Of a stretch of DNA of 64,000 nucleotides, positions 20,095 to 40,563 are shown piece after piece. The notes under the pieces were generated by a model. It was not told the DNA's origin. It did not search any database and saw only the letters and a list, made by a program, of their open reading frames with translations. This DNA comes from Tilletia caries (lineage: Eukaryota > Basidiomycota > Exobasidiomycetes > Tilletiales > Tilletiaceae), in contig JALUTQ010000007.1 in NCBI GenBank assembly GCA_032718865.1, forward strand, positions 1,302,001 through 1,366,000. The letters are read 5' to 3'. Every line of letters begins with the position of its first letter. Position 1 is the first letter of the stretch. A program made the position numbers and the translations under genes.

Positions 20095-20102
20095 GTTGGT
20101 TG

Positions 20103-23100
20103 TAAGGATGCACTCCATCTCCGCTGTACGATATCTCCGCGGCCCGGAGATGAGCAAATCTCCGCGGAGATCTCCTTTCCGCTCGACCAAACAGGGTAGG
20201 GAGATTTTTTTCTGGAACGAATTTTTTTTGGACAGGGTAGGGAGACGGCTCGCGGTGACGGTAAAATGGCGGAGTCACGGAGACGGTTTTCAAAAATGGC
20301 ATCTCCGCGGCATCTACGGCGTAACTCCGCGTCTCCGCCACTATGTTTGACCAATTTCTGATCTTGACGCGTGAGAATCAAATTTGATTGCAGTTTCCGC
20401 ATTGTTGGTTGATCGATCGCTCAGTTATCGTACGAAAAATCCACATGGCGGCATTTGACACTGCCTGAAAGGCTGAGGCTGGCAGACCCTTCATGGCCGC
20501 AGGGCGGAGATACATCAGAGGCTCAGAGCGGTCTCCATCGAACTCGATCATCGGCGCTCTCGACTGCTCTAGAATCCATGACGGACGCTCCTTTTGAAGG
20601 CCGCAGTCTGCGCGATGCTGCCGCGCGAAAGCTTCCCGCGCGTTACGCAGAATCAGAATTGGACGACACGCATTCCAAAAACTCCGGCGTAGATTCTTCC
20701 TCTACGGTCAAGACCTCCCTCCCTCCCTCAACAGTCTCCGGCGGAGTTCAGCCCATTCACAGTCGAGGTGACTCTCCTGTTGCGCCTGGACCTCCTCCCG
20801 GCTACATTCCTCCTTCCGGAACCGTCAAGCGCGGCGCCAGCAAGGCGACTGCTGCTATCAACATGCTTGCCTTCTCAAGCAAAGGTCCTTCACCTCCTCT
20901 CCCTGCTCAAACGCCGTCTTCACCCCCAGTTCCCGTTGCACCAGGCCCTCCTCGTTCTCGTCCGGCCACAGCAGCAGCAGCCCTCAGCACCGACCCAGTC
21001 GCAGGAACGCCTGACTCGGACGGGGAGCAGCCCAACTCCAGCTCCACCGAGGATCCCGAGCCACGCAAGCAGCCCACAGTCGCTCCCAAGAACAAGGCCG
21101 ATATAGCGGAGAAGAGCAAGGAGATACAGAGCGACGAGGAGCCGAGCGACAGTGAGCTGGCGATAGCGGTCGGTGTTTCCAAGACATCCATCATCATCCC
21201 CAAGCCCGGTGTACCCTTCCGACCAACTCCCCGTCCTTTTGTCGCGGAACCAGAAATCGAGGGACGCGTTCGAGCGGATCGCGACGTCGACTTCTTCACT
21301 CGCCGTAAGGTCGCTCTTCGTATAGAAGCACATCCACCAGAACGCCAAACGGTGACGCTCGAAGACGATACTGACGACCAAGACGCGTTCGAACCTGCTT
21401 CTACCTCCAAGACGAAGTCCTCGGCATCCAAGCGTTCCACCGCCATAACAGCTCTTTCGGACGACGATCTCGCGGAGAAGGACCAAGACCAATCAGAAGA
21501 AGAGGTCATTGTCGATCTCACCGGCTCAAGTCCCTCCCCTGCCACAGCTCCGCCGAAGACCGTCAAAGGAAAGACCAAGGTCGTCAACTCCAACAAGCAG
21601 GCCAACTCCATCTCGAAGACTGTCTCCTCGAACTCGAAGAAGCAGAAAGGCAAAGCTTCATCGAAGGCCTCGACGACCTCACGGAGCTCCGCGCCTCAGA
21701 CTCGAACAGCTGCCAACACTCCCACCACTCCCGTTGCTTCTTCTTCGCGCGTCCGTCTTTCAGCTCGCCAGTCTCCGGAGAAGGCAACGGAGAAAGCAAC
21801 GTCCACGTCTCCGGAGAAGTCAGCCGCTGTCGGCTCCGTGACTTTGACCCCGGAGGAGGCATTGAGTGAGTGCTGATGATGGCAGCGGAGGAGGTTGATG
21901 CAGTGCTGATCCTGATCTATTTTTCCTGACTACAGAGCGAGCTCGAACCGCCTGGACCAAGGCACACACTGAGGCAAACGCGAAGTCCAAGTGCGAATCT
22001 GCAGGTCTGGCCTACGTAGCTCCCTCCAACCCGGCATCTCCGTTTTTACCTCTACTATAACGAGCCCTATCTCAAGCAGAACCCTGATCCCCGCCACGAC
22101 AACGTAGGCATAGCTCTAGACTGTCGTTGCTGCGCCGAACATCCGTACACGGCGTGGCGTGTTCTCGAAGGAACTTCGACCAGCCTTCTCAAGTCACACG
22201 TCAACACCAAGAAGGTCCAGGGCAACTTGGAAGCCGCCAAGGCCAAGAGTGGAATCACCGGGCCCATAGAGAGGTACCTGGTCAGCACCAAGAAGGAATC
22301 CACCTCCGCTACTCCGCCTCTCTCCGGCATGCAAGCTCGTCAAATCGCAGTAGCCTGGGTCACCGCGAGGGCCCGACCAATCAGCATTATGGAAGACGAA
22401 GAGTTCATCGAATGGCTCCCGGAGGATCGACGCGGTCTGGTCCCACATCGTAACACCATCACGAAAGACATAGCCCGAACCTTTCTCGGCATGCAGGATG
22501 TGGTGCGCAAGCAGCTCGCGGAGGTCGAGGGGGGGCAATCCATCTAGCCATGGACATATGGACGTCACCCAACGGCCACTCGTACATTGGCGTGGTGGGT
22601 TGCTGGCAGGAGATAGGCAAGCCGGTCAGACACGTACTGGAGATGATCCCTATCACGAACCGGCACACCGCACAGAATATCGCCACGGAGATCGCTCGAA
22701 TGATGAAGCGACTGGGCATCGAGCGAAAGGTGTGGTTCATCGCGAGCGACAGTGCATCCGTCAACACTGCTATGATGAAGATTCTTGGAGACGACGAGAG
22801 CTTGCCGCTGATAGAGGGCGAAGCAACACAAATACGCTGTATGGCACACGTCCTCAACCTGATCTCCGAGGTGGGTGTCCCGAAGATCGTCTCCGCAGCT
22901 CCGTCCGTCCTCCGTAGTTTTGCTGACTCCATACCTCTCTTTCCGTCCATTCATCATCATAGGCAGTCATTCGTCCGTTCAACCAAGCTGTGCGAGAGCT
23001 CAAAGAGAAGGGCGTAACGGAGGAAGAAGACTGGGCCACAGACGAAGAGATCCGAGAAGACTTCGACGTAGAGGAGGTCGACGAACTAGCCGGGGAAGAT

Positions 23101-24966
23101 GACCGAGCTTTCTCCACCAATCTGCACCCATCCGATGCTTACGACGAGGAAGATGATCAGCTCATTCGCCACGCACTTCAAGAAAAAGGAGTCGCCTACG
23201 TCGGCAGCGGAGATCAGGCCCGGCCGTCTTCTTCATCCTCAGGGACCTCTCCTCCTGTTCTCACGGCGGAGTTACGCGCCGACAGCGGAGCGGTGGGACT
23301 TCAGATCCGTCAGCTTGCGTGGTTCGCACGGAAACTCCGGTACAACATCCCTCTCCGCGTCTCCTTCCAAACGACATGTGCTCTCTTCAAGCTCCCCACG
23401 CCGCATTCGCTTATTCGAGACGTCGCCACTCGTTGGAACAGTACGTTCGAAATGATCGAGAGGGCTCTTGCGCTATGGGGCTATGGGACGCCATCGTAAC
23501 CTGGCAGGAACACAACTACAAGATCGTTCCCTTGAAGTTCCGCATCAAGAGGTCCCACAAGCCCGCCTTCGAGATGCTCGTCAAGCTTCTTCAGCCCCTC
23601 AAAGATGCCACATCCCAATTTTTCCACCGATTCCAAGCCAACGATCGCCGACATCGTCGGCACGTACGAGAACCTCGATGAGCACTACCGCAAGATCGAG
23701 GAGGACGAAGGTTGCTCCGAGGCTTGGCGAGAAGCGGCAAAGAGAGCAGGAGCAGTGTGTTCGACATACTATGGCCTGGCGGACAACTCCTCTGTCTTTT
23801 ATCTTGCCGTCATCTTGCACCCGAATCTCCGCGTCTCCGGCATGCAAAGTCTGTGCTGGGAGGAAGTGTGGATCGAGAAGGCCGAAGATACTCTTCGTAG
23901 GATCTTCGAGGACCGCTATCGCTGCGACGAGGTTGAACCAGAATCACAATCACGCAGCCAGGATCCGAAATCGGCCAAGACAGCCCACGCATCCAAGACT
24001 TCCCTCGTTCAACGACTTGAGCAAAAGCAGGCGGCTGCGCAGGATGCGCCTGATCCAATCACGCAATGGATCTCGGGTGAGAATGACGCAGTCTGCTTCG
24101 ACTCGGCTGATCAGGCATTATATTGACACAAATAACCTCTTGCCCTACAGGAAACACGCCGGTGAAGAACAAGCTGGTGAATCCTTTGCAATGGTGGTGG
24201 AAGCAAAAGCAGATAGGATTGATGTGGAGCGGACTTACTGCTCTCGCGCTCGATGTGTTCTCGGCTCCGGCGACCTCCGTCGACGTGGAACGACTCTTCT
24301 CCAAGGCCGGACGTCACGTAACTCCCCTCCGACATCGACTCAAGGCGGTCAAGCTCGGCCAGATGGTGACTCTTGGTGGCTGGTTCCGCGAGGGCTGGGT
24401 ACCTCCCGACTGCCTCGGTACGTACCTGAACGACGAAAGGGACAAGAAGCTATGGAGAAGGCGAAGGGTAAGAAGCGCGCGGAAGTCGAAGACCCGGTCG
24501 ATGAACATGGCGGCGTTACAAAGCGCAGACGTATCGCGGGCGACGCAGATGATGAAGACGATGCTTAGATTGAGGGGAGAATGCTTGTTGGGAAAGGGAG
24601 CAGATGGCTACAGCAGGAGTGCGCAACATCTACTGCGAAATTGACGAAATACAAATTTGACAGGTTGATGTAGGGCGGAGACGCGGAGTTACGGCGTAAG
24701 TGTCGCGGAGACGGGGTAGGGAGATGCTTTCTGGACGAGCAAGTTTTTCAGGACAGGGTAGGGAGACGCCTTGGCTCGGTGACCACTGACAGCGGAGACG
24801 GAGACGTGCCGAGAGACTGTGCTGTCAGGCGGAGATGCGGGGGAGCTCCGCCATATCTCCGCCAGAACAGCGGAAAGGAGATCTCCGTCTCCGGAAAGGC
24901 CGCGGAGACGCGGCGGAGACAGCGGAAAGGAGATAATCTCCGCGGAGATCTCCGTGTGCATCCTTA
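20103..24966 (+). mobile_element. hAT transposon, copy 1 (4864 bp)
   Basis: It starts TAAGGATGCACTCC and ends in the reverse complement TGCATCCTTA. Subterminal regions are dense in CTCCGCGGAGA-type words. The 8 bases before it are GTTGGTTG (20095-20102) and those after it CGCATAGC (24967-24974). They do not match each other; they match, reversed, the flanks of copy 2 at 35131-40014. The copy lacks 24 bases near its left end that copy 2 has (a TTTTGGCGGAG... block), and otherwise differs from copy 2 by a few substitutions and homopolymer indels. Confidence 0.93.
20578..24644 (+). pseudogene. hAT transposase of copy 1, broken by homopolymer indels
   Basis: Exons: 20578-21865 (ATG; long disordered Ser/Pro/Thr region), 21936-22870, 22963-24076 and 24151-24644. 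Exon 2 holds a BED-type finger (DCRCCAEHPYTAWRVLEGTS...H) and the start of the RNase H-like core (AMDIWTSPNGHSYIGVVGCW). Exon 3 continues the core (RDVATRWNSTFEMIERAL). Exon 4 has the C-terminal hAT dimerisation signature (SAPATSVDVERLFSKAG). Against copy 2 it has one extra T at 22043-22047, two extra G at 22529-22535 and one extra T at 23619-23623, each shifting the frame. Both copies share an 8-base duplication (CTATGGGG/CTATGGGA, 23473-23488) that also shifts it. About 1275 residues if intact. Acts in the nucleus on its own TIRs. Confidence 0.85.
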
Positions 24967-26010
24967 CGCATAGCAGCTACCTCGTTTGGATTAGAAGCCC
25001 TACATGTCCGCCTTCCCCTTCAAGAAGATCAGATCACTCTCCTGTGCGATGTCCTATCGAACAATCCCAGTGTTCGCGATTTGGTCGTAGAGATCGACTC
25101 GGCCCTCGACGTTTCGCCCATTCCCAGGCCACTTCTCAAGCTCACGGACTTCCTCAGCGCCAGTTCCGGTTTGTCACTCGAACGTCTTGTCCTCCGCGCC
25201 CCTGGTTGCGACCTTGACGTTACGACTAGCAGCGCCACCCTCGCGCGTCTCTCCTGTATCAAGCACTTCAAGATCGCAGCGTCCCGATTCCATGGCACCA
25301 CCGAGCCTTGGCGATGGGTTCTACAACTTCTGGATGCGTTACCCCAAGTCGAGACGGTCGAGATTGCCGGGTTGCGTAGCGAATCTCCCTCTGAAGGAGC
25401 ATTCCTATCTCCCGCCAGCTGCAAACTTCCACACCTCACCTCCCTGCTTCTGGACCTTCCTGCAGTAGATGCCCGACTTCTACGTGCCCTCCAAGCTCCG
25501 CAGCTTCAACACCTCTCCATTCGTACCCAGAAGCGTCTTTCCGATCATGGCGAGTGCTCCCTCAATCATTTTCCCTCCCTCGTGACCGTTCGGATTGATA
25601 CCCAAGGATCCATCGTTTCCCGCCTTCAACTGCTCGGACTTCCCCGCAACTCCTACATCCACAACTTCCGCCAGTTCAACGAAGAATGGGTCCAAACGCA
25701 AGACTTCTCGGGGGACTTTGTAGCCAAGATCAAGCCTGATCTACGTTTCAGCATGTCCGCGTCTCCAGGTCGAGTACAAGATGCCTCGCCACGTTCGCTG
25801 TGGCTTTCTTCTCCGCATTCCCCTTCGGCCTTGGTACTTGTCCCCTCCTCACCTGAAGACCCTTCATCGCTCAACGCGGTTCCAAACATTCCGGAATCTC
25901 CAACAGCAGCTCGATTTGTCCAGGGATCATCCTTGGGAGAGGCTTCTTGTTCTCATCAACCGGGTCCTTCTACCTTTCGACAAGCTTCCAAGCGCGCACG
26001 ACATTCCTAA
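24967..26010 (+). pseudogene. C-terminal part of an F-box/LRR-like gene, separated by transposon and inversion
   Basis: From the hAT border the frame is open through ATSFGLEALHVRLPLQEDQI and leucine-rich segments (LPHLTSLLLDLPAVDARLL, QLQHLSIRTQKRL) to a TAA at 26008-26010. About 347 codons, ending ...RQASKRARHS. There is no start codon context at its beginning. The eight bases at its left edge, CGCATAGC, equal the reverse complement of 40015-40022, where the N-terminal part (minus strand) stops. Joined there the frame continues without a break (ALSRIA-ATSFGLE). The irregular leucine-rich repeats suggest a protein-binding region, as in fungal F-box proteins. The assignment is by general appearance only. 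Confidence 0.75.
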
Positions 26011-26189
26011 AGTTCTGAAGAAATCACATGTTATGTCTCTGTCCCACAAGCTGTCACGCTCTCCTGCCCTCCCAAGACACGCAGTGCTCGGCACATTCAT
26101 AGTTGTCCTTTTGTACGTTTCGAGATACTCAATTCAAGCTCTTTTTTGTCACAGAAACCGTTGATTTCCTTCTCAAGAATGGGCCGCTC

Positions 26190-27111
26190 CTACACATCAT
26201 CGTCACCATGAAACCCATCTTCACTTCCGCTGACCTCCACCTCCTCGATCTCACCCCCACGTTCAAGCGAAGTCGACCCGGTCTCCCCTTCCGTGTCGGC
26301 CACTTCACGCATATTCGCAGCTTGAGATCCTTGCGGCATTCGCCCAGTTGATGTGGGCTCGTACTGAGGAGGAGGCATCATCGCGTCCGGTCGTGGATTG
26401 GTATCAAGCCGGGGGCTTCGCGATCCCTCACCCCTTGTGTGGAGAATGAATATGGATCAACATACTTGGCAATCCACATTTGATCCGCAATACCACATTT
26501 ACTCACCAAGCGTTTAACGCAATCAGTTGCGAGTGTAGTCGCATAAGTGTGGACTGTCCAGCGCGTACATCGGTGGAAAGTGTGGAGTAGGTTTGTTTGG
26601 CGTTTTGCAGAACTCGCTCGCAGCTGAGACGCGATCGCTCCCTCTCCCTGGCCAAATCTTCGAGTATCTTGCTTGTTGCCTCGTCGAACTGTCGCTGGAC
26701 GAGGTTCTGATATGCCGCTGCTTCTCGTTGCAGTTGGTTTTCGTGGGCGACAGATTCTTGGCGGACTCGGGCTTCGTGTGCTGCAGATTGTTCCCGTATG
26801 CGGGTCTCGTGTGCCGTAGAAACCTCCTGAAGTCGTTCTTGATGTGCTGTGGTTGCCTCGTTCAAGCGACGGGCGATGTCGTTCAAGTCGCTCTGCGTTC
26901 GCGCGTGCATAGACTGTAAGATGGCGTCGTTTTCTTCGAAGGTGTTGATCATCATGGTTTCCACCCCTCTCAGGCCATTCAAGCCGGCCGACATCGTGAT
27001 ACATTGCTCGTATACTGGGTTGAGTGTTGTCGTATAGTGGCGCAAGAACAGGGGCAGGTCGCGTTCCATTCTCGCTTCGGGAGGTCCCGTCGTCGACGCC
27101 GAGGTCGTCAT
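26190..27111 (-). CDS. Coiled-coil hypothetical protein, two exons
   Basis: Minus-strand exon 1 is 27111-26507, an intron of 73 bases follows (GTGAGT...ACACAAG), and exon 2 is 26433-26190 (TAG). Total is about 282 residues. Residues about 50-170 are a heptad-rich helix (EENDAILQSMHARTQSDLND, then ARRLNEATTAHQERL with repeated AHE.R..Q/E units), expected to form a long coiled coil. The C-terminus is acidic (GEIEEVEVSGSEDG). No other domain. The frame is intact and splice sites are good. It converges with the gene half ending at 26010. Role unknown. Confidence 0.6.
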
Positions 27112-28059
27112 TGTGTCGTCGTTGTCGTGGTGACAATCGTGATGTCGCAGTCTTTCGAGGCCCCAAAAGGCCCCAAACTGGTTGTGCGGCGCGTCTTTTC
27201 CACAGGTCGATTGGGATGATGATCCTTGAAGTTCCTTGCGTGCGTTGTGGACTCGTGGTGGTCAGCGTCCTTGAAAGGCTGTCCAGATCTGGAAGGTATC
27301 GGGCATACCAAATGCTTAACTTATTGATCCACAAGCTGTATTTCTGTCTGCAAAGATCTTTTGGATGGTTATAGCGCCGATGGCACTGGATAGACGCCTG
27401 CTTGCGTCACCGAGATCGAGCATCGCGAATCAAGAAAAAGGCAGGAGCTTCCCAGTATCCTCCTTGTCTCACAACCGAATCTCAAACCCCCCACCACCGA
27501 CCCACTCCCTCCATCTTCGTGTTCACCAAAGGTCCTCAAGCCGTTCAGTGCCACTCCACCCTCCTACGTTCAAGCAGGCACGTCCAAAGTAAGTCCCTGC
27601 GCCAGTAGCCGCTCTCAGTTCCTCTGTACTGATTTGGCTGCCTTCAACGGTCGATTTCCAGGAACCTTCATCCTCAGCAGGCTCAAGTCAACATTCAACT
27701 CTTCTTCCATGCGTCACCATCGCCTCACATCTTCCTTTTGCTCCATCCAACATCCTCTTGGTCCGGCCTTCCCTCGCCTTGGACTGTCCAGACTCGCCAA
27801 CCAAGTCACTGATCAACGTCAAGCGCACAGTGTTTTCAGGTCAGTACTTTCCAAGCGCTCACTTCCCAACCATATCGTCCCCTTATATACTCATACGGTT
27901 TTCTTAAACCTTCTAGCATCTCACACAGGGAACTCCCCTTCGTGCAGCTGGTGCTTCATTCGTCCGCGACGATGCATTGAACGCAACTATAAATGAGGAC
28001 ATGGGATCGTCTACTTTTCCCCTTCGTGAGTTCTCTTCATCATCTCGTGCTTCATCAGG
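27112..28059. other. Region between the coiled-coil gene and the Helitron; unclear exons
   Basis: Several short plus-strand frames with possible splice sites lie at 27380-27590, 27640-27840 and 27930-28020. I could not join them into a convincing protein. They may be 5' exons of the Helitron gene or its 5' terminal region. A 5' TC-type Helitron end was not identified. Confidence 0.3.
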
Positions 28060-31000
28060 ATGCCAGTCAACGTTGATATATTGTCACCGTTCCCAACCGC
28101 AGAGCTTCGCGGCCTTGCAATCGCCTATTTTCCGCAGGGCGGAGCCAGTCGCATGTCGCGTGCAAGGCTTGTCGAGTTTATGCTCGAAGGAATGGCCGAC
28201 GAAGAACATCGCCTCCATACCAGCGCTCTCGACGCACTTCGGCCACTGTGGATAACTTTTCCACAACTGCAGCTGTGGCTCACCGGAGCATATGCGAGCG
28301 ATACGGACGCCACCTAGTTGCAGCCTATCTATCTTCAAGACTTCGCAGCTGTGATCCAAGATTTCAAGCACCTCCGCATCTTCAAGATTCCCAACGCCCA
28401 AATGCTGTCTTATCAACTCTTGAGCAGAACGAAGTACTCATCGGTGAGTTTCTCCGCTCTCTCTGTCAATCATGACTCGTAATTGACTCTTCCCTTTCCC
28501 TTCAGATCCTGAGAAAGCTGCCATCTGGCCAGCTCTTGTCCCTCCACAGCTGAAAGCCGACTGCGCGCAAGCGTTCAAAGAAGGCACTACGCTCAAGACA
28601 GCCGCAACGTGTGCCGTTTGCGCCCGGCGAACGTTTTCGCACGATCTGCTCTTCACCAAGAAGCATACCAAATGCAACCGCTTCGATGTCACCGAAGTGT
28701 CCTTGGAAGCGCTTCGCATCATCGACCCCTTCGTCCTTTCCCGTCCTGGCAACCATTTCGACTTCCAGAATCCGTTTCTGGACGGTCTAGCTCTTGATTG
28801 CGCCGGCCTGCACCTTACTGTTTCCCCCTCCCAGATTGACATCTGCTCGGAGTGCAAAACCCAGTTGGACAAGGTACCCTCCAGGATCCCCCCACTCTCT
28901 CTCGCGAACGGCAATATCCGCGGCTTCTTACCTGAAGATCTTCAGGATTGCACATGGCTCGAGGAACGACTCTGCGCAAAGTTCTTAGCCTCCGCCTACG
29001 TCATTCGGCTGTACGACTTTACCGGTGTAGACTCTCCCGAGGAGCGCCCGCGGGTAATGAAGGGTCACAGCTGCGCATTTCCTCTCAACACCATGGCCAC
29101 CGCTACCAAGCTCCCATGGTCATTCTCCGATGCAGGCCCGCTCGTCAGCTGCCTCGTCATTGGCCCAAGGAAGCCACGGCCAGCAGATCTCCGTAACGTC
29201 TTCAAGGTTCGCAAACAAAAAGTACGCGCCCTCCTGGACTACCTCAAAGCCAACTTCAAGGACTATCCGCAGTTCGAAGTCGACAAAGCAGCCCTCGACT
29301 CACTACCAGAAGACGATGTTCCGGAGCTTTTCATGCGCCACGTCGTCTACCAAAACGAAGGCCTGGTTCCTAGCCTTTTCGATCAGGAGACATCGGGCAT
29401 CGAGCCTCATCCTGGCCTTTCGGAGGCCGACGACATAGCAGCAGAAAATGGTCGCACATTCATCGAGCATCATGGCCTGCTCGACGTCCACGGAGTCAGC
29501 GTTCCCCAACACAAGCGAGCTGCGGCGGCCTTGAAGAATGCGACAGGCTTGGAGCGGCCAGATCTCATCATCAAGCATGGTTCGTCCATCCTTCCAGACT
29601 ACAACAACCCTCAACTCTTTCCGGGAATGTTTCCGATGCTGTTCCCATGGGGAATCGGAGGCTTCGAATCAAAACGGTCTGTTGAACCTCCTCCTCGACC
29701 TTGCCGATCCTGCCTTCCGCAGGCACTGGTCCTTCGTCTTTGTGGTCGCCAACATCAAGCAACGGCGGGCCATCCACTTAGGTAGCCAACTTGTGTGTAA
29801 GCACAAGGATTTTGCCTGGGTTTCTCGCACTCTTTCCCAACTTCAACCAGAAACCGTCAAGCGAGTCGCCGACCATGTCGCACTCGGAGGATCGCTTCGC
29901 TCCCTGACAGGCGAAGAACAGACGATCTTCACCTTGCTCAAGAAATGCGAGCTCATCTCGGTCAAGGTCCCTGGTTCCAAGGCAATCATGAATCGCGCAC
30001 GAGCTGACATCCGAAGCTATGTCGGAGAACATGGTATATTCCAATTGTTTCTCACGCTCAACCCTCGCCCTGAGCATGCCCCGTCCTTCCAGATCTTCTT
30101 CGGCGACACCACAGTCGAACTCAATCTCCGGGCGCCACAGATGCCACCTCATTCTACCAGGGCCATTCGTGTTGCCGACGATCCGGTTGCTGCGGCCGGC
30201 TATTTCCATTTTCAGGTCGCAGCCATCTTCCAGTACCTGTTCGGATGGGACATTCGGTCCAAAGCCAGCACTCCCGAAGGCGGCATACTTGGTCGTCTTT
30301 CCGCCTTCTTCCTCGTCAAGGAGCATACGATGCGAGGACAGTTGCATGGTCACGCGCTTCTATGGCTTGAAGGCGGCCTCAACCCCGGCGATCTTCGCAG
30401 AAAGCTTCATCAAGACGAAGAGTTTCAGTCCCGATACCTGGCCTTCATGGATGACATTATCCATCACCACCTACCGGATGCCCCCGACGACGAAGACGTT
30501 ATCATGGCCGAGGTTGGAGAAGGCGACCATTCCCGGTCGCCATCCAATCTCAAGCGTGATCCTCGACAAGAGATGCCGCCCAGCCCGCTTGACGAGCACT
30601 ACGCCGAGGAATTCCGCGAAGATCACCGCCTTCTTGGAGAAGCCCTTCAGAGACATCGTTGCCGCGCGACGTGCTTCAAAGGTTGAAGACAAACCTGTCG
30701 CTTCCTGTTCCCTTATTCCGTGCAAGAACAACCAAAGTTCGACCCCGAGACCAACTCTGTCCACCTGCGCGTCAAAGATCCGGACATCAACTGGCACAAC
30801 CCCGAATTACCGGTGGCCACCCGGTACAATCACGACCTCAAATCAGTCCAATCCGGAAGGAGTTCAGCCGCGGCCGCCGCCTACATCACCAGCTATGCTA
30901 CAAAGTCGGATGAAACCCCGGCGAATCAGATCTCTATGATCAACACGGTCTTCCAACGACTCGAAGAGCACAGCGAAGTGTCTGTCGAGACGAAGACCTT

Positions 31001-33553
31001 ACTCAGCAAGTGCGTCATGCAGTTCGGCCGCGAGCGACAACTACATGCCCAGCAAGTCGCAACGTACGTCAGGGATCTCGGCGACACCATGCAAAGTCAC
31101 CAAACGGTCCCAATGCTCAGCGGGAGTATGATTTCGAAGGTATATCGGTTGTGGGGTAATCCCCGGGATTCCACGCTCGATTCATCCTCAATGCCCGACG
31201 TTGACATGGCCGTCATTCCAAATAGCGGTATCTCGGAGATGGCGAACCAACAGGTTGAACCGGGAGCGGACGTAGCGGACTCGGAAGCGGGTGATTCTGA
31301 AGAGATGCAGTATCTGTCGTCAGGCGGGCTGGCTCATCAAGTCGATGACTATTTGCGTCGGGGTACGACGCTGAAATATGTCGTATTTTATGTCTTCGTT
31401 CGGTACTCGCACTTGGTCCTACAGCCAAAGAAGCCAAACAAGTCACACCATCGTCTCGATGAATCTCATCCAAACTTCAAGACGCACTTCCATCGATACA
31501 ATGTCGACCGGCCTCGTGGGATCCCACGAATGATCTCCAAATCCGACGGCACTCAATCTCATGGCGATCCTTACTGCGCCGCCATGTTGACACATTTTCG
31601 TCCATTCAGTATCCACAGTCCCATTAAAGCGCAGCACGCGACATATGAAGACATCTTCGCAACGACGGCTTTCTCCGCTTCGGCTATCAAGGTGATGTCG
31701 AACTGGGCGGCATTAATGGAGTGCGACGACGCCCGCGACGAGGAACAATTACTTCGACGCAAGCGGGAAGCAACTCGTGATGCCCACAACGATGAGGCAA
31801 TGCAACTCACGGCGGAAGACGGCATCGACGACCCGGAGGCCGACATCAATACAGACGCATTACGCAAGCAAGAACGGACGCAATCCATGGAGACAACGGA
31901 CTTCGTTGGTGCACTTTCCGGTAGCGGTTGGTTCGAAGCTACGTCCCACATACTGCCGACCGAGCCGGTTTCAACTACGCATCTTTGTCCACCTTTCTCA
32001 AATTCACGGAAGCGCCAATGGACGAAGGAACAGAATGATGTTGAAGCAGCCCAGAAAGCGGAGCGTACGGTCGCTAAGGCAAGCAGTGGTGTGTTGTCTA
32101 GGGACCTTGGCTTCGAAGAGCACTTCAAGAGTGCGGACACGCTTCTCTCAGCGGCATTAGATTTCGACGATGTCTCCCGGCCCGAGATTCCCCCTGACAC
32201 CGTGCGTCTGCGATGGAATAACACCCAGCCTCACATTCTCATAGACGAACTCGTCGCCGAACGAGAGCTCAATGCATCCCAAAGGAAGTGATGGCAGATA
32301 TCGACCAGGCCCTGCGCATCGGAACGCAGAAGTTGGACGAACCATTCGGAGGGATCAATGTCATCTTCGCCGGCGACTTATGCCAACTTCCACCTGTTGC
32401 TTCGTCACCTCTCTACACCGTCAAGTCCGGCGCAGCGCAATCAGCGGAAGTTAGGACGAAGATCGAGCTCGGCCGGGCTGCGTGGCTGCAGCTCGTTGAA
32501 GTTGTTGATTTCGACCAGCAGATGCGTATGAAGGATCCACAGATGGCGGAAACTCTTTCTAGGCTACGCCTACGGGAATGCACGGAAGCGTACGCCGATC
32601 TGTTCAACGGCAACGTTCTTCGATCAAGGTCTAACAAAGCGGGAGCCACACTTCAGGCACATACAGGTGCGATCGCTCTTGCCCGAACGAATGAGACTGT
32701 ACGTGTGCTGAACCTCCGAAAGGCTGCTGTTCAGGCTCAGTCGACATCCAACACCCTGGTCATCAGTCACGCCCAGGATTCCTCAACTTCCAAGCTTTCC
32801 GAGACACAGCGGCGGGCCCTTCTCTCCTACAACGGCAGCGCTCGATCTAGAAGCGCCATCGGTCGGGTCCCGTTGTTTGTGGGTATGCCAGTGGTTTACC
32901 GGGGACCCAACATCAGTGTAACGCTCGGCATTACCAATGGGACCTTTGCAACTGTGGCAGGGTGGGACTTGGAACGTGATGAATGGGGTCTCACAGTCCC
33001 AAGAGGAGTTGTGCTGCAGTTCTCTCCCGGCGCCAAGTGGACCATGACTGGTCTCCCTAGCGGTTGCCTGCCGATCTCTCCTGGAACATCCACGTTCAAT
33101 TTCCTCAACACTGGGTCCACCACTCCCACCTCAACAACCCAAGGCGCTTCAACAACCACAGCATCGCAAAGGGTGTCCCGCAAGCAATTTCCCGTTCAAC
33201 CAGGATTTGCGATGACAATCCATTCTGCCCAAGGCGTCACCTCCGATTCCGGTGTTATCGTCGATCTCCGAAGCGGCGGATTCGAAGCGTACGTGGCGGC
33301 ATCAAGGGCCACGTCAAAAGAAGCCGTCTTCCTCGTCGCACCGACTTCAATCCACCAACTCAATCAGCCGACGTTGCCTCGACCGCTCAAATCCGAACTC
33401 ACGCGTCTCCACAGTATCGCCTCCAACACTCGACAAGAACACGACAATGGCAACTGGCGCCTCCTCAAGCGCAGGGCACCATCAAACTCCCCCACCAGTC
33501 CGTCCAAAAGGCGATGTACTTCAGCACCATCCCATCTTCCAATTCCCAGAGGT
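28060..33553 (+). pseudogene. Helitron Rep/helicase gene, dead
   Basis: In order: an SAP-like stretch (SPFPTAELRGLAIAYF, 28080s), Cys pairs (CAVCARRTF, CSECKTQL), the Helitron N-terminal-like domain (FPGMFPMLFPWGIGGFE), then Rep motifs. These are FLTLNP, the HUH box LHGHALLW (His codons 30345-30347 and 30351-30353) and the two tyrosines of YITSYATK (30882-30884, 30894-30896). Pif1-type helicase motifs follow: FGGINVIFAGDLCQLPPV, FAMTIHSAQGVT and YVAASRATS. Lesions: TAG at 28315-28317, a frame change near 29680 and TGA at 30684-30686. A deletion at about 32288 joins LNASQRK straight to VMADIDQAL, removing Walker A and much of the ATPase core. Helitrons transpose by rolling-circle replication; this copy could not. 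Its hairpin/CTRR 3' end was not found. Confidence 0.85.
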
Positions 33554-33989
33554 GAGTCACCCTTTTCCATGTTGCACGTGATGAAGTCATCTATCTGCGT
33601 CGCGTCATCCTTTTCGCTGAAACGAAACTCCTGTCGTCGCGTCCACTAGTTGCAGCACTGGACGCGTCTTTTTGTAGCATATGATAAGGTGGGTCGCGTT
33701 GCCGGATTCCAATTTCTATATCATGCAGATTCCAGGTACTAACAAATTTAGTGCGCTAATATTCTAGACGACGCGTTGGATCCACCAAACAACCAACAAT
33801 TCTCCTTGGACCATCCAAGCCCCCGCAGGACCACTCACCAAAGACCAAATTCCCAAACGCGCATGCGGCTCCCGCCATCCCACACTTATAAATAGGGTGA
33901 GTCTTCCCTTAAGCTCCCCTCTCACGTCCACACCCACCTTACACCTAGCACTTTACCCTTCCCTCATTACGCTGTTTTCCTCCCTCACC

Positions 33990-35133
33990 ATGGACACATA
34001 TCCGTTCCGAAACTCACTGGCCATCCTCACCACCCTTGGTCGCTGCACTAGTACACACCCCGGTGATGTGCTGGCGTACAGGAAGGCCGTCAGCACAATC
34101 GTTCTCAGCCATTCCACCCCGCAACCTTCAAATCCACCGCCCCTCCATCGGCTCATCGATGCCATCATGCGGCTACTTGCGACCGGAGTGCCCGCTCACG
34201 AAGACATCGCCCCCGCTTATTACGCGGCAGTCAATACGGTCTTATCACTTCGGCCATTTCCTTCCCAAACTCCCAGGGAAGATTATACCCTCGATGTCAT
34301 CGACATCATAGGTGAGCGCACTCTTCTTCTCTTATTCTTGCTACTCAGCCTGACACCCTAACGGACCTCTTCCACCGTCTTCGCAGCTGATTCTGATGGA
34401 AGTGACGACGGCGAACAACCTCTTTCCGAACATTCCGGCCCAATCGTCCAGCCTTCCGATGCCACGCTCGATGAGCCCACCATTGCCTCTGCTGCTCGGT
34501 CCAGCAGCAACGACGCAATCCAGCCCTCCAATTCCACGTCCGATGCGCTCACCATTGCCTCTGCTTCTGAGTCCACCAGCGACACCGTCACTCAGCCCCC
34601 AAGCAGCTCCAATACTTGGGATGGCAATATCGATCTCGCTAGCTTCCTTGCCTCTGGCAACTCCTCAAACCTCCTCAACGGCGCCAGCCCTTTTCCTTTC
34701 CAGCAGCAGACCCCACAGCCCATTCCCTCTACGTGGTTCATAACCTACGTCCCCTAGTCCCTACGTCCCCAAGCACGGCGAACCCAATCACGCGGTGCTT
34801 GTCCGATTATTTTCGAAGCATCCGAGGGGCTTTGGATACAGGCGCATCAGGGCTATGCTCGCAGCCATGGCAGCGGGAGAGCTTGATCCGGTTTTAAAGG
34901 CGGAGGGCGACTTCTACGTCGAATATTTCAGCGGGCACCGCGGCGCCGAGCGCATCATCGAGGATGCTTCCAGGTACATCCACTTCTTCATCCGAAAAGC
35001 ATATCGAAACGAGACCGACTACTATCATCAACTCTACCTCATCAACCCCCAGCTGCCCTTTTATCAGACTCCCCAGCCCGGTTTCAGCTGGTCGCCGACC
35101 AACGGCGTCATGGCCGTCATTCCAACCAACTAA
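33990..35133 (+). pseudogene. Hypothetical gene with a 16-bp duplication that breaks its frame
   Basis: Exon 1 is 33990-34311 (ACC-ATG start, MDTYPFRNSLAILTTLGRC...). An intron of 75 bases (GTGAGC...CGCAG) follows, then exon 2 from 34387. Exon 2 begins with acidic, Ser-rich repeats. At 34744-34770 the 11 bases CCTACGTCCCC occur twice, 16 bases apart, creating a TAG at 34755-34757. With one copy removed, FITYVP continues as KHGEPNHAVLVRLFSKHPRG and on to YLINPQLPFYQTPQPGFSW and ...VIPTN, stop. The stop TAA at 35131-35133 lies in the hAT end. The flank beyond copy 1, once the inversion is undone, supplies a TAA at the same place, so the C-terminus is native. Family not recognised. Confidence 0.6.
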
Positions 35134-38100
35134 GGATGCACACGGAGATCTCCGCGGAGATTATCTCCTTTCCGCTGTCTCCGCCGCGTCTCCGCGGCCT
35201 TTCCGGAGACGGAGATCTCCTTTCCGCTGTTCTGGCGGAGATATGGCGGAGCTCCCCCGCATCTCCGCCTGACAGCACAGTCTTTCGGCACGTCTCCGTC
35301 TCCGCTGTCAGTGGTCACCGAGCCAAGGCGTCTCCCTACCCTGTCCTGAAAACTTGCTCGTCCAGAAAGCATCTCCCTACCCCGTCTCCGCGACACTTAC
35401 GCCGTAACTCCGCGTCTCCGCCCTACATCAACCTGTCAAATTTGTATTTCGTCAATTTCGCAGTAGATGTTGCGCACTCCTGCTGTAGCCATCTGCTCCC
35501 TTTCCCAACAAGCATTCTCCCCTCAATCTAAGCATCGTCTTCATCATCTGCGTCGCCCGCGATACGTCTGCGCTTTGTAACGCCGCCATGTTCATCGACC
35601 GGGTCTTCGACTTCCGCGCGCTTCTTACCCTTCGCCTTCTCCATAGCTTCTTGTCCCTTTCGTCGTTCAGGTACGTACCGAGGCAGTCGGGAGGTACCCA
35701 GCCCTCGCGGAACCAGCCACCAAGAGTCACCATCTGGCCGAGCTTGACCGCCTTGAGTCGATGTCGGAGGGGAGTTACGTGACGTCCGGCCTTGGAGAAG
35801 AGTCGTTCCACGTCGACGGAGGTCGCCGGAGCCGAGAACACATCGAGCGCGAGAGCAGTAAGTCCGCTCCACATCATTCCTATCTGCTTTTTGCTTCCAC
35901 CACCATTGCAAAGGATTCACCAGCTTGTTCTTCACCGGCGTGTTTCCTGTAGGGCAAGAGGTTATTTGTGTCAATATAATGCCTGATCAGCCGAGTCGAA
36001 GCAGACTGCGTCATTCTCACCCGAGATCCATTGCGTGATTGGATCAGGCGCATCCTGCGCAGCCGCCTGCTTTTTGCTCAAGTCGTTGAACGAGGGAAGT
36101 CTTGGATGCGTGGGCTGTCTTGGCCGATTTCGGATCCTGGCTGCGTGATTGTGATTCTGGTTCAACCTCGTCGCAGCGATAGCGGTCCTCGAAGATCCTA
36201 CGAAGAGTATCTTCGGCCTTCTCGATCCACACTTCCTCCCAGCACAGACTTTGCATGCCGGAGACGCGGAGATTCGGGTGCAAGATGACGGCAAGATAAA
36301 AGACAGAGGAGTTGTCCGCCAGGCCATAGTATGTCGAACACACTGCTCCTGCTCTCTTTGCCGCTTCTCGCCAAGCCTCGGAGCAACCTTCGTCCTCCTC
36401 GATCTTGCGGTAGTGCTCATCGAGGTTCTCGTACGTGCCGACGATGTCGGCGATCGTTGGCTTGGAATCGGTGGAAAATTGGGATGTGGCATCTTTGAGG
36501 GGCTGAAGAAGCTTGACGAGCATCTCGAAGGCGGGCTTGTGGGACCTCTTGATGCGGAACTTCAAGGGAACGATCTTGTAGTTGTGTTCCTGCCAGGTTA
36601 CGATGGCGTCCCATAGCCCCATAGCGCAAGAGCCCTCTCGATCATTTCGAACGTACTGTTCCAACGAGTGGCGACGTCTCGAATAAGCGAATGCGGCGTG
36701 GGGAGCTTGAAGAGAGCACATGTCGTTTGGAAGGAGACGCGGAGAGGGATGTTGTACCGGAGTTTCCGTGCGAACCACGCAAGCTGACGGATCTGAAGTC
36801 CCACCGCTCCGCTGTCGGCGCGTAACTCCGCCGTGAGAACAGGAGGAGAGGTCCCTGAGGATGAAGAAGACGGCCGGGCCTGATCTCCGCTGCCGACGTA
36901 GGCGACTCCTTTTTCTTGAAGTGCGTGGCGAATGAGCTGATCATCTTCCTCGTCGTAAGCATCGGATGGGTGCAGATTGGTGGAGAAAGCTCGGTCATCT
37001 TCCCCGGCTAGTTCGTCGACCTCCTCTACGTCGAAGTCTTCTCGGATCTCTTCGTCTGTGGCCCAGTCTTCTTCCTCCGTTACGCCCTTCTCTTTGAGCT
37101 CTCGCACAGCTTGGTTGAACGGACGAATGACTGCCTATGATGATGAATGGACGGAAAGAGAGGTATGGAGTCAGCAAAACTACGGAGGACGGACGGAGCT
37201 GCGGAGACGATCTTCGGGACACCCACCTCGGAGATCAGGTTGAGGACGTGTGCCATACAGCGTATTTGTGTTGCTTCGCCCTCTATCAGCGGCAAGCTCT
37301 CGTCGTCTCCAAGAATCTTCATCATAGCAGTGTTGACGGATGCACTGTCGCTCGCGATGAACCACACCTTTCGCTCGATGCCCAGTCGCTTCATCATTCG
37401 AGCGATCTCCGTGGCGATATTCTGTGCGGTGTGCCGGTTCGTGATAGGGATCATCTCCAGTACGTGTCTGACCGGCTTGCCTATCTCCTGCCAGCAACCC
37501 ACCACGCCAATGTACGAGTGGCCGTTGGGTGACGTCCATATGTCCATGGCTAGATGGATTGCCCCCTCGACCTCCGCGAGCTGCTTGCGCACCACATCCT
37601 GCATGCCGAGAAAGGTTCGGGCTATGTCTTTCGTGATGGTGTTACGATGTGGGACCAGACCGCGTCGATCCTCCGGGAGCCATTCGATGAACTCTTCGTC
37701 TTCCATAATGCTGATTGGTCGGTCCCTCGCGGTGACCCAGGCTACTGCAATTTGACGAGCTTGCATGCCGGAGAGAGGCGGAGTAGCGGAGGTGGATTCC
37801 TTCTTGGTGCTGACCAGGTACCTCTCTATGGGCCCGGTGATTCCACTCTTGGCCTTGGCGGCTTCCAAGTTGCCCTGGACCTTCTTGGTGTTGACGTGTG
37901 ACTTGAGAAGGCTGGTCGAAGTTCCTTCGAGAACACGCCACGCCGTGTACGGATGTTCGGCGCAGCAACGACAGTCTAGAGCTATGCCTACGTTGTCGTG
38001 GCGGGGATCAGGGTTCTGCTTGAGATAGGGCTCGTTATAGTAGAGGTAAAACGGAGATGCCGGGTTGGAGGGAGCTACGTAGGCCAGACCTGCAGATTCG

Positions 38101-40014
38101 CACTTGGACTTCGCGTTTGCCTCAGTGTGTGCCTTGGTCCAGGCGGTTCGAGCTCGCTCTGTAGTCAGGAAAATAGATCAGGATCAGCACTGCATCAACC
38201 TCCTCCGCTGCCATCATCAGCACTCACTCAATGCCTCCTCCGGGGTCAAAGTCACGGAGCCGACAGCGGCTGACTTCTCCGGAGACGTGGACGTTGCTTT
38301 CTCCGTTGCCTTCTCCGGAGACTGGCGAGCTGAAAGACGGACGCGCGAAGAAGAAGCAACGGGAGTGGTGGGAGTGTTGGCAGCTGTTCGAGTCTGAGGC
38401 GCGGAGCTCCGTGAGGTCGTCGAGGCCTTCGATGAAGCTTTGCCTTTCTGCTTCTTCGAGTTCGAGGAGACAGTCTTCGAGATGGAGTTGGCCTGCTTGT
38501 TGGAGTTGACGACCTTGGTCTTTCCTTTGACGGTCTTCGGCGGAGCTGTGGCAGGGGAGGGACTTGAGCCGGTGAGATCGACAATGACCTCTTCTTCTGA
38601 TTGGTCTTGGTCCTTCTCCGCGAGATCGTCGTCCGAAAGAGCTGCTATGGCGGTGGAACGCTTGGATGCCGAGGACTTCGTCTTGGAGGTAGAAGCAGGT
38701 TCGAACGCGTCTTGGTCGTCAGTATCGTCTTCGAGCGGCACCGTTTGGCGTTCTGGTGGATGTGCTTCTATACGAAGAGCGACCTTACGGCGAGTGAAGA
38801 AGTCGACGTCGCGATCCGCTCGAACGCGTCCCTCGATTTCTGGTTCCGCGACAAAAGGACGGGGAGTTGGTCGGAAGGGTACACCGGGCTTGGGGATGAT
38901 GATGGATGTCTTGGAAACACCGACCGCTATCGCCAGCTCACTGTCGCTCGGCTCCTCGTCGCTCTGTATCTCCTTGCTCTTCTCCGCTATATCGGCCTTG
39001 TTCTTGGGAGCGACTGTGGGCTGCTTGCGTGGCTCGGGATCCTCGGTGGAGCTGGAGTTGGGCTGCTCCCCGTCCGAGTCAGGCGTTCCTGCGACTGGGT
39101 CGGTGCTGAGGGCTGCTGCTGCTGTGGCCGGACGAGAACGAGGAGGGCCTGGTGCAACGGGAACTGGGGGTGAAGACGGCGTTTGAGCAGGGAGAGGAGG
39201 TGAAGGACCTTTGCTTGAGAAGGCAAGCATGTTGATAGCAGCAGTCGCCTTGCTGGCGCCGCGCTTGACGGTTCCGGAAGGAGGAATGTAGCCGGGAGGA
39301 GGTCCAGGCGCAACAGGAGAGTCACCTCGACTGTGAATGGGCTGAACTCCGCCGGAGACTGTTGAGGGAGGGAGGGAGGTCTTGACCGTAGAGGAAGAAT
39401 CTACGCCGGAGTTTTTGGAATGCGTGTCGTCCAATTCTGATTCTGCGTAACGCGCGGGAAGCTTTCGCGCGGCAGCATCGCGCAGACTGCGGCCTTCAAA
39501 AGGAGCGTCCGTCATGGATTCTAGAGCAGTCGAGAGCGCCGATGATCGAGTTCGATGGAGACCGCTCTGAGCCTCTGATGTATCTCCGCCCTGCGGCCAT
39601 GAAGGGTCTGCCAGCCTCAGCCTTTCAGGCAGTGTCAAATGCCGCCATGTGGATTTTTCGTACGATAACTGAGCGATCGATCAACCAACAATGCGGAAAC
39701 TGCAATCAAATTTGATTCTCACGCGTCAAGATCAGAAATTGGTCAAACATAGTGGCGGAGACGCGGAGTTACGCCGTAGATGCCGCGGAGATGCCATTTT
39801 TGAAAACCGTCTCCGTGACTCCGCCATTTTACCGTCACCGCGAGCCGTCTCCCTACCCTGTCCAAAAAAAATTCGTTTCAGAAAAAAATCTCCCTACCCT
39901 GTTTGGTCGAGCGGAAAGGAGATCTCCGCGGAGATTTGCTCATCTCCGGGCCGCGGAGATATCGTACAGCGGAGAAAATCTCCGCCAAAACAGCGGAGAT
40001 GGAGTGCATCCTTA
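35131..40014 (-). mobile_element. hAT transposon, copy 2 (4884 bp), inverted relative to copy 1
   Basis: Same ends as copy 1 (TAAGGATGCA at 35131-35140; TGCATCCTTA at 40005-40014) and nearly identical inside. Left flank is CAACCAAC and right flank GCTATGCG. These two do not match, but are the reverse complements of copy 1's left and right flanks respectively. It retains a 24-base subterminal block missing from copy 1. Confidence 0.93.
35452..39515 (-). pseudogene. hAT transposase of copy 2, frame broken at other sites than copy 1
   Basis: Mirror of copy 1: ATG at 39515, BED finger, RNase H-like core and the ERLFSKAG dimerisation region, stop at 35452. Unlike copy 1 it reads through the SPFYLYYNEP and EVEGAIHLAMDIW regions without a shift. 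It instead has one extra A/T at 36071-36075 and another at 35888-35892. The 8-base duplication at 36609-36624 is shared with copy 1. Amino-acid differences noticed: P for T in the VTLEDD segment, A for T in AITALSDD, and D for A in the segment TARARPISI. Confidence 0.85.
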
Positions 40015-40563
40015 GCTATGCGAGACAAAGCAGATGCTCCGTGTATCCACTGTGGGACTTGAAAGGTGTTCCATCCCCATCGAGTGCCAAGACGATCGAA
40101 GCTTTTGACGCGAAGATCCAAAGAGAGAACTTTGAGCGGGATGAGGTTGAGGCGCCGAACCCTGGAAGCTTGAAGGGTGAGGGAAGGTACTTCGTCCCAT
40201 TCCGATCCGAGGTGATGGCGCCAATAGGGTGCATGGCCACTTGCATCGGCGTGGATCTGGGGTAACCATGTGACTGAATGACGTCCCAGCTCGACCAAAG
40301 GTGAGTTGCCAATGGGACTGTCCATAAAGGAACACCGACGACTGAGGTGATGGGTGACCGCTGCTCGCATGCGACGGTTGACTGATGCGAGGTTGTTCAG
40401 ACGTTTGGTGCGCGATAGGGGATTGTCGGCGGGGTCGTCCAGCGCGTGTTGAACGATGAGCACAAGAAGTTCACCGTGGAGGTCTGCGGGAAAGAGCGAT
40501 CAAGATGAGTTAACGGGAAGCAACAAAGACACCAGTAGGGAGATACTCACCATGGAGAGGCAT
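40015..40563 (-). pseudogene. N-terminal part of the F-box-like gene, truncated by hAT copy 2
   Basis: Minus-strand exon 1 is 40563-40551 (MPLH plus one base). An intron of 67 bases (GTGAGT...CGCAG) follows, then exon 2 from 40483. The start DLHGELLVLIVQHALDDPAD, with LNNLASVNRRMRAAVTHHL, resembles an F-box: a Leu-rich helix, then 'vNrrmr'. The frame runs to ALSRIA at 40015, where the transposon begins. Its continuation is on the plus strand at 24975. F-box proteins recruit targets to SCF ubiquitin ligases; that role is inferred only from the general pattern. Complete, the protein would be about 505 residues. Confidence 0.7.

What the first reader, a model, noticed from the sequence alone, without database searches (positions are those of the whole stretch)
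20095..40022. Swapped target-site duplications show an inversion between two hAT copies
Copy 1 (20103-24966) is flanked by GTTGGTTG and CGCATAGC; copy 2 (35131-40014) by CAACCAAC and GCTATGCG. Neither pair matches within a copy, but CAACCAAC is the reverse complement of GTTGGTTG and GCTATGCG that of CGCATAGC. Flipping 24967-35130 gives both copies perfect 8-bp direct duplications. This is what homologous recombination between inverted copies produces. It dates the inversion after both insertions and suggests the segment might flip back and forth.
Basis: seen in the sequence. Interest (0 to 1): 0.92.

Follow-up and report, generated by a model that had tools for sequence, protein, structure and literature searches.

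The report
Transposon-flanked inversion that split a gene
In what appears to be a wheat-bunt fungus, a 10-kb stretch of chromosome lies upside down between two nearly identical jumping-gene copies, and the two halves of one broken gene now lie on either side; such inversions are a known kind of event, here cleanly documented.

Summary
The 8-bp flanks of two 4.9-kb hAT copies share 0 of 8 bases within each copy but match perfectly, reverse-complemented, between copies (16 of 16). Of 18 other family copies with both ends, 17 carry ordinary duplications (0-1 mismatch). Independent support comes from a gene whose N-terminal half (40499 to 40014, -) and C-terminal half (24967 to 26007, +) lie on opposite sides and strands. 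At 10 of 10 other genomic places matching the N half the C half is next to it, and in an intact T. indica protein the halves meet at the residues the duplication encodes. So 24967-35130 is inverted relative to the ancestral order. Contig length identifies the genome as, very likely, Tilletia caries TC1_MSG (Nanopore/Flye).

Recombination between two inverted insertions and hybrid element insertion from ONE insertion leave the same exchanged duplications; published work separates them by chimeric versus identical copies. Here copies are near-identical (7 substitutions in 4858 bp) and no uninverted relative was available, so 'inversion after both insertions' is not shown; flipping is untested. 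A known kind of event; I favour recombination.

The parts
20095..20102 (+). 8-bp target duplication a (GTTGGTTG), left of copy 1
   Evidence: sequence
20103..24966 (+). hAT copy 1, 4864 bp, ends TAAGGATGCA
   Evidence: relatives
24967..24974 (+). 8-bp target duplication b (CGCATAGC), right of copy 1; reads R-I-A in the split gene's frame
24967..26007 (+). C-terminal half of the split gene (347 codons; stop at 26008-26010)
24967..35130 (.). segment of 10,164 bp inverted relative to the ancestral order
   Evidence: exchanged duplications and split gene
28487..33649 (+). Helitron-like stretch inside the segment (DUF6570, Helitron_like_N, PIF1), in several frames
34744..35130 (+). 3' coding part of gene X; its frame ends at the duplication and the element's first three bases (TAA) read as its stop codon
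35123..35130 (+). 8-bp duplication a, reverse complement (CAACCAAC)
35131..40014 (-). hAT copy 2, 4884 bp
40014..40499 (-). N-terminal half of the split gene as searched (base 40014 is the element's first base); F-box/LRR-like by weak fold evidence only
40015..40022 (+). 8-bp duplication b, reverse complement (GCTATGCG)

Best explanation
A hAT element inserted within a host gene (site b), and a second, nearly identical copy sat in opposite orientation about 10 kb away, at the stop codon of another gene (site a). Homologous recombination between these two inverted 4.9-kb copies turned over the 10,164 bp between them, exchanging their inner flanks; this moved the gene's C-terminal half to the far side, on the other strand. 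Shown: exchanged duplications, the split gene, near-identity of the copies. Inferred: that a host recombination crossover, not the transposase, did it; that two insertions preceded the inversion. Not shown: repeated flipping.
For: Exchanged perfect 8-bp duplications. 17 of 18 other copies with paired ends have duplications with 0-1 mismatch, so the family makes 8-bp duplications. Split gene: of 10 other places matching the N half, 10 have a C-half match next to it on the same strand in the right order, 6 of them abutting with a 6-nt overlap, as expected when both query halves carry the duplication; the intact T. indica protein P0122 aligns the N half to 4-161 and the C half to 159-497, the overlap being R-I-A, the residues coded by the duplication. 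The copies are 4.86 kb, 0.14% substituted, inverted and 10 kb apart, a good recombination substrate. The flanks fit without visible loss beyond the duplications, unlike reversed-ends transposition. Neither gene half has a second near-identical place in the assembly; the other matches are 24-40% identical, so no second haplotype of the locus is in it.
Against: The chimerism that argues for recombination in Drosophila Galileo (PMC2775673) could not be tested: the 7 substitutions, polarised by the third copy (2.8% away), are 4 changes private to copy 1 and 3 private to copy 2, with no mosaic pattern. Near-identical copies are also what hybrid element insertion predicts. No reads or DNA of a second strain could be examined. 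Junction a rests on the 8-bp identity alone; no gene was found to span it.
Confidence: 0.65

Rival explanations
1. Hybrid element insertion (aberrant transposition): after replication, the left end of the element on one sister chromatid and the right end on the other were used as one transposon and inserted into a site about 10 kb away on one of these chromatids. One event made the second copy, the second 8-bp duplication and the inversion.
For: Gives the same exchanged duplications with no loss at the breakpoints; PMC2775673 section 10 calls its outcome 'strikingly similar' to ectopic recombination, the copies being identical instead of chimeric. The two copies are nearly identical (7 of 4858) while the third full-length copy is 2.8% away. 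With 3 full-length copies found in 38.1 Mb (a lower bound), any two of three lying this close by chance has probability about 0.002, so one probably arose from the other (local transposition would also explain this).
Against: Alternative transposition is stated to be less frequent than standard transposition in maize Ac/Ds (PMC8225341 section 15). A T. controversa protein carries the copy-1 residue (L) at a site where copy 2 and the third copy share the other base, so under this model the inversion should already be present in T. controversa; untested.
Confidence: 0.22
2. Assembly orientation error: the true order is uninverted and the assembler joined the 4.9-kb inverted repeats the wrong way.
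For: Repeats are 4.9 kb and 99.9% identical by substitutions; homopolymer indels between the copies suggest imperfect polishing there. I saw no read lengths in the parts of the paper read.
Against: Nanopore coverage is reported as 317x with Flye 2.9; repeats of 4.9 kb are usually spanned by such reads (recalled).
Confidence: 0.09
3. Reversed-ends transposition between two existing copies, or chance similarity of unrelated flanks.
For: Reversed-ends transposition does cause inversions with Ac/Ds (hAT) elements in maize (PMC8225341).
Against: It gives a new duplication at the breakpoints and loss of the DNA between the copies, not two exchanged pairs. Chance is about 2.6e-10 and does not explain the split gene.
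Confidence: 0.02

Closest known systems
Galileo-mediated inversion 2z3 of Drosophila buzzatii (PMC2775673; passages and section 10 part 1 read)
   Same: Two opposite transposon copies at the breakpoints with exchanged target duplications and no deletions or duplications.
   Different: P-superfamily element with 7-bp duplications; its copies are chimeric, which could not be tested here; uninverted chromosomes were available there.
Ac/Ds alternative-transposition inversions of maize (PMC8225341; passages and section 15 read)
   Same: hAT-type element with 8-bp duplications at inversion breakpoints.
   Different: Reversed-ends transposition leaves matching new duplications at the breakpoints and loses the DNA between the copies; here two pairs are exchanged.
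hAT MITE arrays at Atlantic cod inversion breakpoints (PMC12368964; abstract and outline only)
   Same: hAT-family repeats proposed to have driven inversions by ectopic recombination.
   Different: Large-scale inversions and tandem MITE arrays; no exchanged duplications mentioned in what I read.
impala aberrant transposition in Fusarium oxysporum (Hua-Van 2002; citation seen, paper not read)
   Same: Aberrant transposition of a DNA transposon in a fungus.
   Different: Tc1/mariner element, not hAT.

Membership tests
hAT superfamily transposon | 8-bp target site duplication | tested here: met
   23 distinct other loci examined: 18 with paired ends, 17 of these with 0-1 mismatch, 1 unmatched; 5 without an end pair. 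Only 1 of the 18 is full length; 7 belong to a subfamily with ends TAAGGATGTC
hAT superfamily transposon | short terminal inverted repeats | tested here: met
   TAAGGATGCAC at both ends of both copies
hAT superfamily transposon | hAT C-terminal dimerisation domain | tested here: met
   PF05699 above its cut-off (30.7 against 21.4 bits) in a piece of copy 2; the related T. controversa protein P0125 also has it and matches four transposase chains only weakly, E 0.039-0.055, two of them named Hermes
hAT superfamily transposon | DDE catalytic domain | tested here: inconclusive
   no catalytic-domain family passed its cut-off on the pieces and relatives searched
Inversion by ectopic homologous recombination between inverted transposon copies | exchanged target duplications | tested here: met
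Inversion by ectopic homologous recombination between inverted transposon copies | independent evidence that the separated flanks were once adjacent | tested here: met
   junction b: 10 of 10 places and the intact T. indica protein; junction a rests on 8 bp only
Inversion by ectopic homologous recombination between inverted transposon copies | chimeric copies | tested here: inconclusive
   only private changes, 4 in copy 1 and 3 in copy 2; no uninverted parent copies available
Hybrid element insertion | exchanged duplications with copies identical at birth | tested here: inconclusive
   pattern met and copies near-identical, but recent transposition plus recombination gives the same
Reversed-ends (alternative) transposition | new matching duplications at the breakpoints, DNA between the copies lost | tested here: not met
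   two exchanged pairs
Invertible (flip-flop) switch | both orientations present in a population | not testable with these tools
   no reads, no DNA of a second strain

The most novel reading that the evidence does not exclude
A single hAT insertion inverted 10 kb of chromosome and copied itself in one hybrid-element (sister-chromatid) transposition in a fungus, so that what looks like a textbook recombination signature is a one-step transposase product; and since the result is a pair of near-identical inverted repeats, the segment may exist in both orientations within wheat-bunt populations.
Probability: 0.2. Interest if true: 0.6.

Novelty: new member of a known kind. Interest (0 to 1): 0.4.

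Why it matters
It is a small, complete example of transposon-linked chromosome rearrangement in a bunt fungus, with gene-based support at one junction in addition to the exchanged duplications. It also illustrates that exchanged target duplications alone do not separate host recombination from aberrant transposition, and names the comparison (T. controversa) that would. Long-read data for T. caries TC1_MSG and two T. controversa isolates are reported, so it could be settled by read mapping.

Tried and rejected
Other swapped duplications: among 18 other copies, two looked mismatched. One (C3:59615) has its outer right end further on, at 61743, with a perfect duplication. The other (C1:745346, TGCTGAGA/TTCGAAAG) has no partner with the missing flanks at up to 1 mismatch, so no second recombinant pair was found. 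This was not a genome-wide survey: I fetched 20 regions picked from the 109 matches, and itself gave loci, three of which repeat fetched ones. Where one search listed several end pairs for a locus I took the outermost TAAGGATG-type ends; one locus (L040) listed only an internal look-alike end and is counted as having no pair.

Chimerism test with the third copy: uninformative. Spanning gene at junction a: gene X appears to end at the junction. One paralog stops 3 codons after the aligned part (that script then stopped on an error, so 1 of its 3 paralog loci was read), so junction a has no gene test. Intact allele in wheat-bunt fungi: a database search with the C half alone (3 hits; only the 7999 candidates sharing most words were scored, lengths 0.55-1.75 of the query) gave no intact T. 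caries, T. laevis or T. controversa protein, only the T. controversa hAT-fused model P0121 and T. indica and T. horrida proteins. Orientation in T. controversa cannot be read from proteins, since the element's 3' end abuts the C half in either orientation. The last protein search (transposase piece, 5 hits among 2312 candidates) shows that T. controversa has a copy like copies 1/2 and one like the third copy, but covers no site that separates copy 1 from copy 2 in the 1/2-like protein. Naming the split gene: no Pfam family passes a cut-off; a weak model (mean pLDDT 55.5, 2 sequences) resembles LRR and F-box/LRR proteins (COI1, TIR1, a Skp2 complex) with no match at E <= 0.001, so 'F-box/LRR-like' is only a label. 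Rfam: no match in the window at gathering scores.

Literature: seven searches; no listed title or abstract start describes a hAT-mediated inversion in Tilletia. Listings only, except PMC10684912 (passages; sections 5 and 6), PMC9172201 (passages), PMC2775673 (passages; section 10 part 1), PMC8225341 (passages; section 15), PMC12368964 (abstract, outline). Gray et al. 1996 is not held.
Full report
Where it is. The window lies in a 38.1-Mb, 40-contig genome, on contig C7, 2,689,501 bp long. That is exactly the largest-contig length reported for Tilletia caries TC1_MSG, a common-bunt fungus of wheat (38.18 Mb, 46 contigs; PMC10684912, passages); a conserved flavoprotein gene of the window is closest to T. 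horrida, 86%. That assembly used Nanopore reads (317x reported) with Flye and Illumina polishing from a culture started from a single germinating teliospore. I treat the identity as very likely; the tool names no organism.

Observation. Within copy 1 and within copy 2 the flanks share 0 of 8 bases; between copies the reverse complements share 8 of 8 twice; the chance from composition is about 2.6e-10. As a control on the rule that this family makes 8-bp duplications, I looked at 23 distinct other loci: 18 had a pair of ends, of which 12 have perfect duplications (one after correcting its right end), 5 have one mismatch and 1 does not match (C1:745346); 5 loci had no end pair. Of the 18, one is full length (C1:1325350; one mismatch, and an imperfect right end) and the rest are shorter relatives, 7 of them with ends TAAGGATGTC. 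So the two window copies depart from the rule in just the way an inversion predicts.

Independent support. The right outer flank (40499 to 40014, minus strand) and the left end of the segment (24967 to 26007, plus strand) are two halves of one gene. Searching the halves separately in the genome gave, besides themselves, 10 places for the N half and 12 for the C half. All 10 N-half places have a C-half match beside them, same strand, right order, at -6 to 121 nt; 6 of 10 abut with a 6-nt overlap. The 2 C-half places without an N-half match are both on contig C33. Two of the 10 have stops inside the C-half match. An intact T. indica protein (P0122, 497 aa) aligns with the N half at 4-161 (62% identity) and the C half at 159-497 (54%); the overlap R-I-A is what the duplication CGCATAGC encodes, read in frame in both halves. 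T. horrida P0123 matches both halves too. Thus 40014 and 24967 were neighbours before, separated at most by the insertion. For the other junction only the 8-bp identity is available: gene X appears to end at the duplication, and the element's first three bases, TAA, read as its stop.

Age. The copies differ by 7 substitutions in 4858 bases; the third full-length copy (C1) is 2.8% away. The 7 differences are 4 private to copy 1 (which also lacks a 24-bp stretch) and 3 private to copy 2. The 1-2-base indels all lie at homopolymers and may be sequencing errors. A T. controversa protein model (P0121, 600 aa) fuses the 3' part of the transposase to the C half of the split gene, 344 of 344 residues identical there: the insertion in the gene is shared with T. 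controversa. At the one separating substitution that it covers, P0121 has the copy-1 residue L, where copy 2 and the third copy have the base that makes the codon M. If that polarity is right, the two copies had separated before the species' alleles did. One site is thin evidence.

Mechanism. Two models fit. (ii) Hybrid element insertion: transposase joins the left end on one sister chromatid with the right end on the other and inserts them about 10 kb away, creating the second copy and the inversion at once. By my own derivation (ii) leaves one copy flanked by a and b', the other by a' and b, the same as (i); the Galileo paper says the outcomes are strikingly similar and separates them by chimerism of the copies (PMC2775673 section 10 part 1). 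Chimerism is not testable here. I favour (i) because inverted, near-identical 4.9-kb repeats 10 kb apart should recombine readily (inference), so given such a pair an inverted state is expected, whereas alternative transposition is stated to be less frequent than standard transposition in maize (PMC8225341 section 15). Against that, the copies' near-identity and closeness (about 0.002 for any two of three random copies,'s copy number a lower bound) suggest that one copy arose from the other, which local transposition or (ii) would both explain. Reversed-ends transposition does not fit the two exchanged pairs.

Consequence. The gene is interrupted by the insertion in either orientation; the inversion additionally puts its halves about 15 kb apart on opposite strands. 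Paralogs remain, so loss of this member may be tolerated (inference). Gene X keeps its coding frame to the stop.

Verdict. The inversion is in the assembly and is very probably real in the organism's history; it is ordinary in kind. The claim about the order of events should be softened, and flipping remains a hypothesis to be tested by read mapping.

Noticed in passing
L025 (G000:C25:966640-967700) and L030 (G000:C25:1054800-1055800): Two short relatives of the element on one contig, about 88 kb apart and on opposite strands, have duplications that are each other's reverse complement (CCCCGAAG; CTTCGGGG/CTTCGGGA): possibly one insertion carried by an inverted segmental duplication.
   Followed up: no
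L034 (G000:C1:745200-746900): A related short element with unmatched flanks (TGCTGAGA/TTCGAAAG); no reciprocal partner found at up to 1 mismatch.
   Followed up: partly
window 28487-33649: Helitron-like stretch (DUF6570, Helitron_like_N, PIF1 domains in different frames) inside the inverted segment.
   Followed up: no
window 35123-35133: The element at site a landed at the apparent stop codon of gene X; the element's terminal TAA reads as the stop, and the left outer flank read on the minus strand also has TAA right after the duplication.
   Followed up: partly
window 40400-40499, minus strand: The open frame of the split gene's N half shows no ATG before its conserved start, so its first exon or start codon was not located.
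   Followed up: no
P0121 (T. controversa, 600 aa): A public gene model is a fusion of hAT transposase and the C half of a host gene, named after the hAT dimerisation domain; such models can mislead annotation.
   Followed up: yes
window 57876-58703: Long alanine-rich and other low-complexity reading frames overlapping a 1227-codon minus-strand frame.
   Followed up: no
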